64,000 nt of DNA, from positions 62,001 to 126,000 of the forward strand of contig CANMLS010000009.1 of NCBI GenBank assembly GCA_947498785.1, read 5' to 3'. Both the position numbers and the translations under genes were made by a program. Below, in pieces: positions 2,636 to 9,742 of the stretch. This DNA is from an uncultured Aquimarina sp. (GTDB taxonomy: Bacteria > Bacteroidota > Bacteroidia > Flavobacteriales > Flavobacteriaceae). How positions within the stretch are numbered: position 1 is the first letter of the stretch; every line of letters starts with the position of its first letter. Under the pieces are notes generated by a model. The model was not told the origin of the DNA, ran no database searches, and was given only the letters and a program-made list of their open reading frames with translations.

Positions 2636-3193
2636 ATGCAACCTGTTAGATCTATTGATTCAATATTATGGACAAAGATCAAGTTGGGAGATTTGAATGC
2701 TTTTAATGAGCTGTATGATAAATATATAGACTCATTATATGCCTTTGGTATTCAGTATACCAATGATACGGGTTATGTTAAGGATTGCATTCATGATCTT
2801 TTTTTAGATATATATAAATATCGAAAGAAGCTTTCTGATGTAGATAATGTCAAATATTATCTTTTTACTTCCCTTAAGAGAAAAATTAACAAAAAATTTA
2901 AATCCAAGCTAAAGTTGTTTTCTGCAGATGATAAAAAGGATGAAATTGTTTCTTCATCAAAATCTGCAGAAGAATCGATTATTCAGACTGAAAACTCATT
3001 AGAAATTAGTGTTAAACTTTCAGAGGCAATGACTTTACTTTCTAATAAACAAAGAAGAGGATTGTTTTTAAAATTTGATGAGAAGAAATCCTATGAAGAA
3101 ATTGCTGCTATCTTAGGAATCTCTATAGAATCAGTAAGAACTTTAATCTACAGAGCAGTAAAAAAACTACGTAATGAAATAGAAATCGAATAA
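2636..3193 (+). CDS. RNA polymerase sigma-70 factor, ECF subfamily
   Basis: Sigma70 region 2 (YTNDTGYVKDCIHDLFLDIYKYR) and region 4 HTH (KSYEEIAAILGISIESVRTLIYRAVKKLR). Confidence 0.93.
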   Translation: MQPVRSIDSILWTKIKLGDLNAFNELYDKYIDSLYAFGIQYTNDTGYVKDCIHDLFLDIYKYRKKLSDVDNVKYYLFTSLKRKINKKFKSKLKLFSADDKKDEIVSSSKSAEESIIQTENSLEISVKLSEAMTLLSNKQRRGLFLKFDEKKSYEEIAAILGISIESVRTLIYRAVKKLRNEIEIE

Positions 3194-3367: not shown

Positions 3368-4375
3368 ATGTTAAGTGAAGAAGAAAAAGATATTCTAAAA
3401 TCTAGAATAGGGACATCTATCTCAGAATATCGAAAGAAGAGAAGAAAGAGAAGATTTGGATATATAATTAGTACGGCTGCTGCTATTGCTATTTTATTGA
3501 TATCTATTAATTACTCAAACGGATTGCATAATTCTTCAAAAATTAAGAATTATGTACATACTTCAGACATAGATATTCATAATGATGGAGATGTGAAATT
3601 AGTTTTAAACGATAAAGAAGAGATAAAAATTGCCGAAAGTTCATCAAGTATTACATACTCTAGCTCAGGTGATGAGTTGGATATTAATAATTCTAAAAAA
3701 GTTGAGCAATCATCTAAAAATACATTTAATACTATTATTGTTCCTTATGGAAAGAGAACTAAAATCACACTTTCTGAAGGAACAAAGGTTTGGCTTAATT
3801 CTGGATCTAAATTAACATATCCAGTAACATTTAATGGTGATAAAAGAGAAGTTCACCTTACAGGTGAGGCAATTTTTGACGTGAGACACAATTCACAACA
3901 ACCATTTTATGTGATAACTGATAATTATGATATTAAAGTTTTAGGTACAGTTTTTAATGTAAGTAGTTATCAAGATGATTCATATACCAGTACAGCTTTA
4001 GAAAGAGGTAGTGTAGAAATAAAATATCAAGGAAATTCTATTTTCGGAAAGTCGAGTGTTAAAATAAAACCAGGTACGATTGCTGTATATAATAGCAAAG
4101 TAAAAGGTATGAAAACTAGAAAAGTAGATGTAGCAAAATATATGTCGTGGCGTGATGGTAAATTCATTTTTAAGAAACAAAGAATGGATTTAATTATCAA
4201 GAAACTTTCTCGATATTATAATGTAAACATTTCGATTGAAAGTGAGGAGCTTAAAAGTCAAACCTTTTCGGGTCATCTAGATTTGAAAGAAAGTATAGAG
4301 AAGGTATTAGAGGTTATGAAACAATCTACAGATTTAAAATATAAAGTAGAAAATAAAAATTTTATAATTAATTAA
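3368..4375 (+). CDS. FecR family anti-sigma factor
   Basis: Single TM near N-terminus; FecR core (VPYGKRTKITLSEGTKVWLNSGSKLTYP...GEAIFDV) and DUF4974-like C-terminus. Confidence 0.93.
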   Translation: MLSEEEKDILKSRIGTSISEYRKKRRKRRFGYIISTAAAIAILLISINYSNGLHNSSKIKNYVHTSDIDIHNDGDVKLVLNDKEEIKIAESSSSITYSSSGDELDINNSKKVEQSSKNTFNTIIVPYGKRTKITLSEGTKVWLNSGSKLTYPVTFNGDKREVHLTGEAIFDVRHNSQQPFYVITDNYDIKVLGTVFNVSSYQDDSYTSTALERGSVEIKYQGNSIFGKSSVKIKPGTIAVYNSKVKGMKTRKVDVAKYMSWRDGKFIFKKQRMDLIIKKLSRYYNVNISIESEELKSQTFSGHLDLKESIEKVLEVMKQSTDLKYKVENKNFIIN

Positions 4376-4422
4376 AAACATCAACCGTATGATATAGAAA
4401 CATAACACAACTTTTTTATAAT

Positions 4423-4499
4423 AAAAAAAGTCAGAAAATGCGGCAACATTTTCTGACCTAGATCAAAATATCGCGATATCGCAATACTTAATTACGTAA
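4423..4499 (-). ncRNA. Hypothetical cis-antisense sRNA opposite the susC leader
   Basis: Perfect 11-bp hairpin whose U-tract lies only on the minus strand; -7-like TAATTTTG on the minus strand at 4511-4504; 5' end is a guess. Confidence 0.25.
4430..4457 (-). terminator. Intrinsic terminator oriented on the minus strand between fecR and susC
   Basis: GTCAGAAAATG-CGGCAA-CATTTTCTGAC; A7 at 4423-4429 gives a U-run on minus-strand RNA; no T-run on plus strand. Confidence 0.55.
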
Positions 4500-4510
4500 A
4501 AAACAAAATT

Positions 4511-7500
4511 ATGAATAAAAAAGCTAATGGGCTTTCTTTTTTATCCAAAAAGAAGAAAATCAATTTTTTATTGACTATTATGAGAGTTTTTATTTTATTC
4601 CTATGCTTTGGATTAACTAGCGTTTACGCTAATAGCTCTTATTCACAGACTAAACTCAATGTCAACTTAAAAAATGCAACTTTTGAAGAATTATTTGAAC
4701 AAATTCATTCTCAAAGTGAATTTATATTCTTTTATAAAGATGATATCATAAAAACAGACAATACAATTACCCTTAATCTCAAGGAATCTACTATTGATGA
4801 GGTTTTAAATAGAGCATTTGTAAAAACAGATCTTACTTATAAGATATTGGATAGACAAATAGTAGTATCCAAGTTAAAAAAAGAAGATATTACGAAAACG
4901 TTTTCACCATTAGAGGAGCCTGTTCAGGATGTTGTAACAGGTAAGATAACTACATCAGGCGGAGGACCACTACCAGGAGCGAGTGTTATTATAAAAGGTA
5001 CATCTAGAGGAACTCAAACAGATTTTGATGGTAATTATCAATTAGAAGTTGCCAATGGAGAAACTATTGTATTTTCTTATGTAGGATTTACAACAAAGGA
5101 AGTAGTATATTCTGGTCAAAGTCCTATTGAGGTAGTTCTTGTTGAAGATGCAAGTGAATTAAGTGAAGTTATTGTAACGGGGTATACAAAACAGAATACT
5201 AGAAATATTACAGGTTCGGTTACAGTTGTTCAATCAGAAGCTATAGCCTCAACTACTCCTACAAGTTTAGAACAAGCTTTACAAGGGCAAGCAGCTGGTG
5301 TTACTGTAGGTGTTGAAGGAGGACCTGGAGGAAGTTCTGCAGTACGTATTAGAGGATACGGTACTATCAATGGGAATGATCCATTATATGTAATCGATGG
5401 AGTACAAACAGGTCAGGGACTTAGTGATCTTAACCCTGATGATATTGCCTCTATTCAGATACTTAAAGATGCAGCTGCAGCTTCTATTTATGGAATCGGA
5501 GCAGCTAATGGTGTAGTTGTAATCACTACAAAAAGTGGTAAAAAAAACAATAAAGTGACTTTTAGATATAGTGGTTTAACTGGAGTTGATTTTATACCAG
5601 AGTCTGTATTTCCAGAATTTGCAACACCACAACAAATAGCAGATTCTTATTGGCAAGCTTTAGCAAATGATGGTCAAACACTTTCTCATCCACAATATGG
5701 TTTTGGGAGTAATCCTGTACTACCAGATTATATCTTACCAGAAGGCGTTGTAGGATCTGTAGATGAAAGTACATATAGCTTTCCTGGAAATAGAATTACA
5801 AGAGCAAATAAAGAAGGAACAGACTGGTTTGATGCATTTTTTGATCCTGCTTTTGTACAACAGCATAATATTTCTGCAACAGGTGGGGGAGAAAACTCTA
5901 AACTATATGTAGGTTTGGGAGTACTAGATCAAGAAGGAGTTGGTATTGCTACTAGTTTTGAACGTTATAATTTAAGAGTAAATTCAGAATTTGATGTTAC
6001 TGATAGATTTAGATTAGGAGAATCGGTAAATGTTTCATACTCAGAAAGAATTGGAGTTATTGATCCGGTAGGAAATTCTAGTAATCAGGATAATGAAGGT
6101 CAAATAGCAGCGCTATATAGAAGTAATCCTCTTATCCCTGTTACCGATATTGCTGGTAATTTCGCAGGTACAGGTACAATAGGTGGAGTAGGTAATGCTT
6201 CGAATGCAATTGGTGTAGCAAGAAGAAATGCAAATAATCCTACTGAGACTATTAGAGCATTGGGATCAGTCTATGCAGAATTTGATATTATTGATGGATT
6301 ACTAATTAAATCTACTTATACAGCAGATATGAGTAGTTCTAAATTCTCATTTTTTAGACCAGTAGATGTAGAAAATTCTGCTGCGAGACAAGTAAATCTA
6401 TTAAGAGAAACATCCACAGACATTATCAATACCAACTGGTATAATATCTTACAGTATACTAAGACCTTAGCAGATGTTCATAGTATTGATGCGTTTATAG
6501 GAACAGAATTTAAAAAGAATAGATTTGAACAATTCTATGGGCAAATCACAAATTTCTTAGAAGACGATCCTGATTTTACCTTTTTAAGTGCTGGTACAGG
6601 TTCTCAGACTGTTGGAAGTGGGCAATCAAGATCTTCTAGTTTTTCTGTCTTTGGAAAGGTAGATTATGCATATGATGACAAATATTTGGTTAGCGCAACA
6701 CTTAGACAAGACAATTCTTCTTTATTTGAAGCTGGTAATCAAGATGCTATTTTTCCTGCCTTTAGTTTAGGGTGGAGAGTCTCTGGAGAAAGTTTTCTTG
6801 AAGATTCTTCAATAGTGAGTAACTTAATGCTGAAGTTTAGTTGGGGACAATTGGGTAATAATTCAGTCCCTGCATTTAGAGGAATTACTTCGTTTTCTTC
6901 CAATTTAGATTTTTATGATTATAATGGACAAACAGGGGTTTTCTTAACTAATATTGCAGATCCAAATTTAACATGGGAGACTACAACAACGACTAATTTT
7001 GGTCTTTCGGCATCTTTTTTTAACAGTGCTTTAGATATAGATTTGGATGTTTATAGTGCAGTTACTAAAGATATGCTACTTGCAGTACCTACGGATCCGA
7101 CAGTTTTTGGAAATACGATTGGTTCGATATTTAGAAATTTTGGAGAAATGACCAATACTGGTTTTGATTTAGGAATTTCATATTCTAACAGTTCAGAAGC
7201 TGCTTTTTCATATTCAATAGGAGCAAATATATCTCATTATAAAAATGAAGTTGATTTCTTAGATAAAAATAACCTTGATCAAGTAATTGCTAATCCAAAT
7301 TTAGGGTCTCAAACAGGTTTCGAAACTACAAATACAGTAGCAGGTCAGCCTATTTCTTCGTTTGTTGGTTTTACATGGGAAGGAATTGATCCTACTACAG
7401 GAAGAGCGATTATCACTGGTAACTCACGAGATATTATTGGAAGTCCTCATCCAGATTTTACCTATGGAATTAATTTTGATGCTGAATATAAGAATTTTGA

Positions 7501-7963
7501 TTTGTCTTTACTTTTTCAAGGTTCTCAAGGAAATGATATTTATAACCTAACCAAGTTTTGGACAGATTTTTCAAATTTTGAAGGAGCTAGGAGTTTAGAT
7601 TATGTTCAGAATTCCTGGACTCCAACAAATACAGGAGGTTCTTTACCAGCTTATACACTTAGTGCTGATGAAGCAAGAGGATCTTCATACTATATAGAGG
7701 ATGGATCTTATCTTAGACTTAAAAATGTTTCAGTTGGATATACTTTAGGTGAAGCGATAAGTTCAAAAATAAGAGTTGATAAAATAAGAATCTTTTTACA
7801 AGGAAAAAACTTATTAACGTTTACAGGTTATGATGGCTTGGATCCAGAAATTAACTTATCAAACTATTCCAATCAACAACAGGCAAATCTAGAAATCGGA
7901 GTTGACAGAGGAGCTTATCCAGTGTCGCGATCAGTAAATCTAGGATTGAATGTTTCATTTTAA
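4511..7963 (+). CDS. SusC/RagA-family TonB-linked outer membrane protein with N-terminal STN domain
   Basis: STN domain (NLKNATFEELFEQIHSQSEFIFFYKDD), carboxypeptidase-like domain (GASVIIKGTSRGTQTDFDGNYQL), TonB box/plug (EVIVTGYTKQNTRNITGS, IRGYGTINGNDPLYVIDGV). Confidence 0.96.
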   Translation: MNKKANGLSFLSKKKKINFLLTIMRVFILFLCFGLTSVYANSSYSQTKLNVNLKNATFEELFEQIHSQSEFIFFYKDDIIKTDNTITLNLKESTIDEVLNRAFVKTDLTYKILDRQIVVSKLKKEDITKTFSPLEEPVQDVVTGKITTSGGGPLPGASVIIKGTSRGTQTDFDGNYQLEVANGETIVFSYVGFTTKEVVYSGQSPIEVVLVEDASELSEVIVTGYTKQNTRNITGSVTVVQSEAIASTTPTSLEQALQGQAAGVTVGVEGGPGGSSAVRIRGYGTINGNDPLYVIDGVQTGQGLSDLNPDDIASIQILKDAAAASIYGIGAANGVVVITTKSGKKNNKVTFRYSGLTGVDFIPESVFPEFATPQQIADSYWQALANDGQTLSHPQYGFGSNPVLPDYILPEGVVGSVDESTYSFPGNRITRANKEGTDWFDAFFDPAFVQQHNISATGGGENSKLYVGLGVLDQEGVGIATSFERYNLRVNSEFDVTDRFRLGESVNVSYSERIGVIDPVGNSSNQDNEGQIAALYRSNPLIPVTDIAGNFAGTGTIGGVGNASNAIGVARRNANNPTETIRALGSVYAEFDIIDGLLIKSTYTADMSSSKFSFFRPVDVENSAARQVNLLRETSTDIINTNWYNILQYTKTLADVHSIDAFIGTEFKKNRFEQFYGQITNFLEDDPDFTFLSAGTGSQTVGSGQSRSSSFSVFGKVDYAYDDKYLVSATLRQDNSSLFEAGNQDAIFPAFSLGWRVSGESFLEDSSIVSNLMLKFSWGQLGNNSVPAFRGITSFSSNLDFYDYNGQTGVFLTNIADPNLTWETTTTTNFGLSASFFNSALDIDLDVYSAVTKDMLLAVPTDPTVFGNTIGSIFRNFGEMTNTGFDLGISYSNSSEAAFSYSIGANISHYKNEVDFLDKNNLDQVIANPNLGSQTGFETTNTVAGQPISSFVGFTWEGIDPTTGRAIITGNSRDIIGSPHPDFTYGINFDAEYKNFDLSLLFQGSQGNDIYNLTKFWTDFSNFEGARSLDYVQNSWTPTNTGGSLPAYTLSADEARGSSYYIEDGSYLRLKNVSVGYTLGEAISSKIRVDKIRIFLQGKNLLTFTGYDGLDPEINLSNYSNQQQANLEIGVDRGAYPVSRSVNLGLNVSF

Positions 7964-7975
7964 AAAAAAGCTGTA

Positions 7976-9742
7976 ATGATAAAAATATTTAAATTGTTAA
8001 AAGCTAATAAAGTACTAATAGGAATTGGTATTTTACTACAAATTGCTATAATTTTCCAATCTTGTAAAGACGAACTAGAAGTTCCTTTGCAGGGTCAGGT
8101 TAATGATAGCGATATTATTTTTGATAATGATTGGGTAACTCTTCAGCTAAATGCTGCATATGCGATGTTGGATTTAAATCCAGCTACGAACGATCCATGG
8201 CGTTCTGATCCTTCGCATTGGATTTATGGAGAAGTATCATCTGATAATGCCTATAAAGGAAGTGATCCAGGAGATCAACCCGTTATTGATAATGTAGAAG
8301 CATATACAGCTACATCTTCTGAAAATAATTATTATGGTTTTTTATGGAATGCCATTTTTGAGGGAGTTGCACGTAGTAATGAAGCTATACGAGGTATAAA
8401 AAAAGGAGTAGAAGAAGGGGATTTAACATCTGCCGAAGCAGCTGAATTAGAGGCTGAAGGAAGATTCCTTAGAGCACATTACCATTTTGAAGCTAAAAAG
8501 ATTTGGGGTAAGATACCATTTGTTGATGAAACCGTTACTGAATCGATATCTAACGAAAATGTGGATTCTTGGGGACTCATAGAAGCAGATTTACAATTTG
8601 CAATTAATAACCTTCCTGAAACATCTAAATTTGTTGGATCTGGAAATAGCTGGGCTGCAAAATCGTATTTAGCGAAAGTACATATGTATCAATTAGATTA
8701 TGATGCAGCTAAGCCGATTTTGGATGATGTAATTAATAGTGGTCCATATAGTTTGACTACCAAATATTCTGATAATTTTAATGCGGAAACCAAAAATTCT
8801 AGTGAATCTATATTTGCTGTACAGCATACGGTAAATGATGGAGCCTCTCGAGATGATAATGGTAATTGGGGTCATGCTCTCAATTTTCCAAACGGGGCTC
8901 CTGTAGGAACAACAGGAGGATCATGTTGTGGTTTTTTTCAACCTTCACAAAACTTAGTGAATGCGTATAAAACAGATGCATCTGGATTACCTTTGTTAGA
9001 TACTTTCAATGACTCAGACGTGACTAATGATGATGGAATAGCTTCTAGTGATGTTTTTACTCCCTATACAGATGAATTGGATCCAAGATTAGATTGGAAG
9101 GTTGGCCGTAGAGGTATAGATTTTAATGGTTGGGGGATTATGCCAGGGCAATCTTGGATACGTAACCCAGCTAATGGAGGTCCTTATCTTCAGAAAATAA
9201 CGGTATTTAGAGCAAGTCAATTTAACAATATAGCTATTGATGCATCTAATGCTTGGGCATCATCTGTAAGTTCGATTAATACAAATATCATTAGATATGC
9301 CGAAATACTGTTATGGAGAGCAGAGATTATGGCAGTACAAGGAGAAGGAGACTTAGGAGTATCCTTAGTGGATCAAGTAAGAATGCGTGCAGCAAACCCT
9401 GAGGATTTTGTAAAAGAATTGGATGCAGATGGTATGCCGACAGCTACTCCAGCTGCGAACTATGTAATTAGCCCATATGGTTCTTTTACAGGACAAGCAC
9501 AAGCTATAAAGGCAGTTGCTCATGAATATAGAATAGAAACGGCATTAGAAGGACATCGTTTCTTTGACTTGGTAAGAAGAGGCGAAGCATCAACGATTTT
9601 GACAAACTATTTAGCAGAAGAGTCTACAAAAAGATCTCATCTTAGTGGTGTATCTTTTTCATTGAGAAGTCAGGTATACCCTATTGCACAAAACATAATT
9701 AGTGTAAGCGGTGGTCTTATCAAACAAAATGACGGATATTAA
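7976..9742 (+). CDS. SusD/RagB family nutrient-binding outer membrane lipoprotein
   Basis: Lipobox QSC; SusD features (AEGRFLRAHYHFEAKKIWGKIPFVDE, RYAEILLWRAEIMA, HEYRIETALEGHRFFDLVRRG). Confidence 0.95.
   Translation: MIKIFKLLKANKVLIGIGILLQIAIIFQSCKDELEVPLQGQVNDSDIIFDNDWVTLQLNAAYAMLDLNPATNDPWRSDPSHWIYGEVSSDNAYKGSDPGDQPVIDNVEAYTATSSENNYYGFLWNAIFEGVARSNEAIRGIKKGVEEGDLTSAEAAELEAEGRFLRAHYHFEAKKIWGKIPFVDETVTESISNENVDSWGLIEADLQFAINNLPETSKFVGSGNSWAAKSYLAKVHMYQLDYDAAKPILDDVINSGPYSLTTKYSDNFNAETKNSSESIFAVQHTVNDGASRDDNGNWGHALNFPNGAPVGTTGGSCCGFFQPSQNLVNAYKTDASGLPLLDTFNDSDVTNDDGIASSDVFTPYTDELDPRLDWKVGRRGIDFNGWGIMPGQSWIRNPANGGPYLQKITVFRASQFNNIAIDASNAWASSVSSINTNIIRYAEILLWRAEIMAVQGEGDLGVSLVDQVRMRAANPEDFVKELDADGMPTATPAANYVISPYGSFTGQAQAIKAVAHEYRIETALEGHRFFDLVRRGEASTILTNYLAEESTKRSHLSGVSFSLRSQVYPIAQNIISVSGGLIKQNDGY

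What the first reader, a model, noticed from the sequence alone, without database searches (positions are those of the whole stretch)
4423..4511. Minus-strand terminator in the fecR-susC gap: candidate cis-antisense sRNA repressing susC
Seen: a perfect hairpin GTCAGAAAATG-CGGCAA-CATTTTCTGAC (4430-4457) has a 7-A tract on its left only, so it is an intrinsic terminator for minus-strand RNA, yet no minus-strand gene lies there. A -7-like TAATTTTG (minus, 4511-4504) would start a ~75-nt RNA ending at it. Established: Bacteroides PULs under ECF sigma/anti-sigma control can carry DonS-type antisense sRNAs opposite the susC leader. The layout here (ECF, FecR, susC) matches.
Basis: partly seen in the sequence, partly recalled or inferred. 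Interest (0 to 1): 0.6.

Follow-up and report, generated by a model that had tools for sequence, protein, structure and literature searches.

The report
Antisense RNA gene guarding susC
Just upstream of a nutrient-uptake gene in the marine bacterium Aquimarina, the opposite DNA strand carries a small RNA gene whose folded shape is preserved in dozens of related genera, which makes a guessed antisense brake on nutrient import a well-supported RNA family that can be tested at the bench.

Summary
The hairpin at 4430-4457 with its 7-A tract is the terminator of a predicted ~77-nt minus-strand RNA (4499→4423) opposite the susC leader in an Aquimarina ECF-FecR-susCD locus.

All 19 FecR orthologues in the genus keep it (48-100% FecR identity). 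So do 73/78 FecR-susC gaps from named Flavobacteriaceae, Prolixibacteraceae and others (shuffles expect 0.5; plus-strand terminators 0/78). In this genome it precedes 4/4 FecR-linked susC genes and 0/15 other susC genes.

Wobble pairs show which strand folds: 83 G·U on the minus strand against 1 on the plus in the terminator stem, and 151 against 11 in a second, 5' hairpin. A covariance model run blind on 151 genomes gave 30 best hits, all beside FecR; in 29 the susC start codon sits exactly at model position 1. The sigma-A -7 box TAnnTTTG overlaps that start codon in 56/73 loci, against 0/232 other gene starts.

This works like the DonS-type PUL antisense RNAs of Bacteroides. Expression and repression remain untested. 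A conserved tiny ORF upstream of the hairpin is unexplained.

The parts
4423..4499 (-). Predicted cis-antisense sRNA (~77 nt) opposite the susC leader
   Evidence: MFE -26.5 kcal/mol, z -5.6; conserved two-hairpin structure; CM R1 hit 4423-4511, E 1.7e-10. 5' end inferred from box-to-TSS spacing in PMC9723704
4430..4457 (-). Intrinsic terminator hairpin, 11-bp stem, loop UUGCCG
   Evidence: all 19 genus orthologues; every non-Watson-Crick pair there is G.U on the minus strand
4423..4429 (-). U-tract of the terminator (A-tract on + strand)
   Evidence: A-tract conserved in all 19 orthologues
4466..4489 (-). 5' hairpin of the antisense RNA (UAUUGCGAUAUCGCGAUA region)
   Evidence: wobble polarity 7:1 in the genus, 151:11 across named loci
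4504..4511 (-). sigma-A -7 box TAATTTTG (TAnnTTTG) overlapping the susC start codon
   Evidence: CAAANNTATG at 56/73 susC starts vs 0/50 FecR and 0/182 other ORF starts
4389..4397 (+). Conserved minimal ORF or motif ATG-ATA-TAG upstream of the hairpin (function unknown)
2636..3193 (+). ECF sigma factor
   Evidence: Pfam Sigma70_r4_2 2.8e-12
3368..4375 (+). FecR anti-sigma factor
   Evidence: Pfam FecR_C 2.4e-20, FecR 7.8e-17
4511..7963 (+). susC (TonB-dependent transporter with STN domain), proposed target
   Evidence: Pfam Plug, STN, CarbopepD_reg_2
7976..9742 (+). susD
   Evidence: Pfam SusD_RagB 3.1e-32

Best explanation
The locus encodes a cis-antisense small RNA that acts as a local brake on susC. 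Housekeeping RNA polymerase starts from a TAnnTTTG box that shares bases with the susC start codon, transcribes ~77 nt back through the susC leader, and stops at the hairpin before reaching fecR. The RNA folds into two hairpins. It most likely pairs with the susC leader, perhaps starting by loop-loop contact between the complementary GC-containing loops of the sense and antisense hairpins, and so keeps leaky susC mRNA untranslated or unstable while FecR holds the ECF sigma factor. When substrate frees the sigma factor, abundant sense transcription outruns the RNA and passes over its promoter. Shown here by comparative sequence: the minus-strand RNA structure, the terminator, the promoter box and the association with FecR-linked susC. 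Inferred: transcription, pairing, repression and the effect of induction.
For: 19/19 genus orthologues keep the A-tract and hairpin. Own genome: 4/4 FecR-preceded susC against 0/15 other susC. Class sample: 35/59 FecR-to-next-gene gaps with minus terminators, 2 plus, shuffles 0.4. Named loci: 73/78 minus, 0 plus, shuffles 0.5. Strand-neutral wobble count: 83:1 in the terminator stem and 151:11 in the 5' hairpin. Alignment of 56 sequences: 95.9% of cells paired, 104 double-change cells vs 28 in shuffles, 0/500. Box at the start codon: 56/73 susC vs 0/232 other starts. Blind CM search of 151 genomes: best 30 hits all have FecR upstream, and in 29 SusC starts exactly at model position 1. Bacteroides DonS-type asRNAs repress susC-led PULs and 32 PUL-associated asRNAs are reported in B. 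thetaiotaomicron (PMC7366714, PMC10994844).
Against: No -33 element is conserved, although none was found in F. johnsoniae either (as cited in PMC7366714). The RNA as predicted stops 12 nt short of the start codon, so it would hinder ribosomes only indirectly. The sense start site is unknown; if it lay downstream of the hairpin, overlap with susC mRNA would be small. About 40% of gaps in the wider class sample show no qualifying terminator, although by eye some have long-loop hairpins the finder cannot score. Related sequences share ancestry, so pair counts are not independent events.
Confidence: 0.75

Rival explanations
1. The act of antisense transcription, not the RNA, matters: polymerase firing from the start codon collides with or occludes sense transcription of susC, and the terminator only protects fecR and the sigma gene from antisense transcription.
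For: Promoter box fixed at the start codon and terminator just before fecR are what interference would need. Both features are as conserved as the RNA.
Against: It does not explain the conserved covarying 5' hairpin or the terminator loop motif (TTGGCG/TTGCCG and flips; 10/33 antisense terminators against none of about 28 others).
Confidence: 0.15
2. The RNA is a trans-acting sRNA that merely lies here and regulates other mRNAs.
For: Structured sRNAs with GC-containing loops often act in trans; FopS sRNAs repress susC mRNAs in trans in B. thetaiotaomicron (PMC11697453).
Against: Position is fixed to the adjacent susC start in 29 of the best 30 model hits. Stem and spacer sequences differ between paralogous loci, as expected of private cis partners.
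Confidence: 0.05
3. The hairpin works in the sense mRNA (leader stabiliser, attenuator or fecR terminator).
For: The sense RNA would contain the complementary hairpin.
Against: Imperfect pairs are G.U on the minus and A.C on the plus strand, 83:1; U-tract only on the minus side; 0/78 plus-strand terminators.
Confidence: 0.02
4. The inverted repeats are operator sites for a DNA-binding regulator.
For: The 5' repeat in Aquimarina is a perfect palindrome (TATTGCGATATCGCAATA).
Against: Half-site spacing varies between species, and one-sided changes are G.U on the minus strand; a DNA site would show no strand bias.
Confidence: 0.02
5. Chance hairpin and chance promoter-like sequence in an AT-rich gap.
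For: AT-rich DNA gives many A-tracts and TAnnTTTG matches (1.7 per kb).
Against: Conservation, covariation and the blind search.
Confidence: 0.01

Closest known systems
DonS-type PUL-associated cis-antisense RNAs of Bacteroides (Cao et al. 2016, described in PMC7366714 and PMC10994844)
   Same: Encoded opposite and just upstream of susC homologues of nutrient-uptake loci, short (DonS family 78-128 nt; ~77 nt predicted here).
   Different: Found here in Flavobacteriaceae, Prolixibacteraceae and other families. DonS itself could not be aligned: its sequence and the 2016 paper are not held. Whether DonS shares the two-hairpin fold, the start-codon promoter or the loop is unknown to me. Repression is shown for DonS, not here.
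FopS sRNAs of B. thetaiotaomicron (PMC11697453)
   Same: Small RNAs that repress susC translation near the start codon.
   Different: FopS act mainly in trans as a multicopy family with a shared seed; the RNA here is predicted to be cis-encoded with one private copy per susC.
Plasmid copy-number antisense RNAs such as CopA/CopT (own knowledge)
   Same: Sense and antisense hairpins with complementary GC-containing loops that could start pairing.
   Different: Different gene context; no consistent YUNR motif in the loops seen here; kissing untested.

Membership tests
DonS-type PUL antisense RNA | Encoded antisense to the leader/5' end of a susC homologue | tested here: met
   4423-4499 minus, opposite the leader of susC 4511-7963; 29 of the best 30 model hits likewise
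   ECF and FecR directly upstream; 4/4 FecR-linked susC against 0/15 others in the genome
DonS-type PUL antisense RNA | Length 78-128 nt (PMC7366714) | tested here: inconclusive
   ~77 nt predicted from box and terminator; 5' end not mapped
DonS-type PUL antisense RNA | Expressed as a discrete small RNA | not testable with these tools
   No RNA-seq or northern data held for Aquimarina
DonS-type PUL antisense RNA | Represses the cognate susC | not testable with these tools
   Needs mutants
DonS-type PUL antisense RNA | Sequence or structure homology to B. fragilis DonS | not tested
   DonS sequence not available; no Rfam family matches.
Intrinsic terminator | Stable GC-containing stem followed by a U-tract on the transcribed strand | tested here: met

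The most novel reading that the evidence does not exclude
The gap between fecR and susC is an ancient composite control module of the Bacteroidia: a private antisense RNA whose promoter is written across the susC start codon, an orientation-indifferent loop for sense-antisense contact, and a conserved minimal ORF (start codon plus 0-6 codons) in the sense leader that positions a ribosome next to the hairpin. Together they make susC translation depend on both substrate signalling and antisense pairing.
Probability: 0.25. Interest if true: 0.78.

Novelty: new member of a known kind. Interest (0 to 1): 0.62.

Why it matters
PUL antisense RNAs were known from gut Bacteroides, and I found no report of them in Flavobacteriia in the open-access library searched. 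Here a structured, covarying version is shown across many marine and soil genera, tied to FecR/ECF-linked susC genes. That suggests a second, RNA-level lock on sigma-controlled glycan uptake is general in the class, and it gives a covariance model and an exact promoter position that make the idea directly testable in culturable Flavobacteriaceae.

Tried and rejected
The DonS paper (PMC4999932) is not held. A diverse FecR alignment was too divergent for the collection scan, so a narrower one was used. A first wobble count (1) was discarded because the finder accepted only minus-strand wobbles; one search repeats it strand-neutrally. A weak Rfam match to STnc370 at 4511-4572 (28 bits, cut-off 54) is treated as chance. 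A first motif search upstream of the hairpin found only FecR codons and was repeated on noncoding sequence. The -33 promoter element was looked for and not found. The YUNR loop motif was considered and does not fit consistently. Sense-hairpin and DNA-operator readings were rejected on wobble polarity.

Full report
OBSERVATION. The hairpin GTCAGAAAATG-CGGCAA-CATTTTCTGAC is at 4430-4457 with seven A at 4423-4429. A terminator scan finds it on the minus strand only. None of 5000 dinucleotide shuffles of the gap matches it. The window holds eight comparable terminators, and by my comparison with the ORF lists this is the only one not at the 3' end of a gene on its strand (ORF lists). Pfam confirms the layout ECF sigma, FecR, SusC with an STN domain, SusD. 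The hairpin sequence is single-copy in the 5.67-Mb genome.

GENUS. FecR orthologues occur in 19 of 69 genomes of the genus, and named records identify the genus as Aquimarina. All 19 keep the A-tract and hairpin 50-57 nt before the susC start codon where the script measured it, although FecR identity falls to 48% and the sequence between fecR and the hairpin differs widely. A second hairpin between the first and the start codon is conserved too. On the minus-strand alignment of 19 sequences (A2), 98.2% of cells pair, four pairs change on both sides, and no shuffle reaches these values.

WHICH STRAND. A G.U pair in one strand is an A.C mismatch in the other, so imperfect pairs reveal the strand that folds. 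In the genus all 11 imperfect pairs of the terminator stem are G.U on the minus strand and none on the plus; in the 5' hairpin the count is 7 to 1. Across 73 named loci, counted with a strand-neutral rule, the numbers are 83 to 1 and 151 to 11. Shared ancestry means these are not independent events, but they recur in many genera. An earlier count was biased and is not used.

OTHER LOCI OF THE SAME GENOME. Four susC genes follow a fecR gene, and all four have a left-A-tract hairpin in the leader. None of 15 other susC genes does. Four further fecR genes run straight into the next gene without a gap and lack the element.

CLASS-WIDE. In a sample from several families of the class, 35 of 59 fecR-to-next-gene gaps of at least 60 nt carry a minus-strand terminator and 2 a plus-strand one; shuffles predict 0.4 and 0.1. 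Among named loci returned for FecR relatives (Aquimarina, Flagellimonas, Maribacter, Winogradskyella, Polaribacter, Salegentibacter, Arenibacter, Draconibacterium, other Prolixibacteraceae and more) 73 of 78 gaps have one and none has a plus-strand one.

PROMOTER. The minus-strand sigma-A -7 box TAnnTTTG, read on the plus strand as CAAANNTATG, overlaps the susC start codon in 56 of 73 named loci and in 18 of 33 loci of the class sample. It is at 0 of 50 fecR starts and 0 of 182 other ORF starts in the same loci, and at 0 of 37 other long-ORF starts of this genome. The C at -7 is present in 95% of non-Aquimarina sequences. F. psychrophilum start-site data place this box at -12 to -5 (PMC9723704), so the RNA here should start at 4499 and span ~77 nt; alone it folds with z -5.6. 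No -33 element is seen, as in F. johnsoniae (cited in PMC7366714).

BLIND TEST. A covariance model (R1) was built from 56 sequences (A5), in which RNAalifold predicts 20 pairs, 14 with double changes, and 104 double-change cells against 28 in shuffles. In this genome it finds only the window locus. In 151 genomes, one per genus, of the family it finds matches in 34 at E up to 0.01. The 30 best hits were examined: all 30 have a FecR gene upstream, and in 29 a SusC gene starts exactly at model position 1. Rfam has no matching family.

LOOP. The terminator loop is conserved (mostly TTGGCG or TTGCCG on the minus strand), and in several loci it appears as the reverse complement (for example L018, L154, L155 and the own paralogue L004), while unrelated terminators have other loops. 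A loop that may flip but not change suits contact between complementary sense and antisense loops; this is inference.

MECHANISM. Most likely a housekeeping-transcribed cis-antisense RNA restrains susC while FecR holds the sigma factor. Transcription interference is the main rival. The sense start site, the expression of the RNA and repression were not testable here.

KNOWN BACKGROUND. DonS of B. fragilis represents a family of 78-128 nt antisense RNAs opposite susC homologues that lower their expression (PMC7366714); 32 PUL-associated antisense RNAs are annotated in B. thetaiotaomicron, some anticorrelated with susC (PMC10994844). The present RNA works like these by position and size. Homology to DonS itself could not be tested. 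Literature searches of the open-access library found no report of such RNAs in Flavobacteriia, which is weak evidence of absence.

UNEXPLAINED. Upstream of the hairpin a motif (g/cYTATG, often TGCCTATG) is conserved. It reads as a start codon followed within six codons by an in-frame stop in 44 of 45 named loci, against 11 and 14 in the other two frames, with similar cases in paralogous loci and the class sample. Where fecR ends next to the hairpin, fecR itself often ends ATG-NNN-stop. It could be a minimal ORF in the sense leader or an ECF promoter element.

Noticed in passing
4389-4397 (+); same place in L149-L222, L090, L116, L118, L120, L226-L254: Conserved TGCCTATG-like motif that reads as a minimal ORF (start codon, 0-6 codons, stop) upstream of the hairpin; in-frame stops 44/45 against 11 and 14 in other frames. 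Minimal leader ORF or ECF promoter element.
   Followed up: partly
L018, L154, L155, L163, L203, L221 and own paralogue L004: The terminator loop is flipped to its reverse complement while the stem stays, suggesting orientation-indifferent loop function or simple inversion between repeat arms.
   Followed up: partly
L005-L008 (own genome): Four FecR genes are followed without a gap by another gene and lack the antisense element, so the element goes with FecR-susC gaps rather than with every FecR.
   Followed up: partly
9770 (+): A good sense terminator lies between susD (ends 9742) and the FG-GAP/UnbV gene (starts 9820), so susCD and the downstream gene may be only partly co-transcribed.
   Followed up: no
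4511-4572 (-): Weak Rfam match to STnc370 (28 bits, cut-off 54), probably chance.
   Followed up: no
L185, L188 (Arenibacter arenosicollis): Two FecR loci a few kb apart on one contig; one has the antisense terminator and the other (310-nt gap) does not.
   Followed up: no
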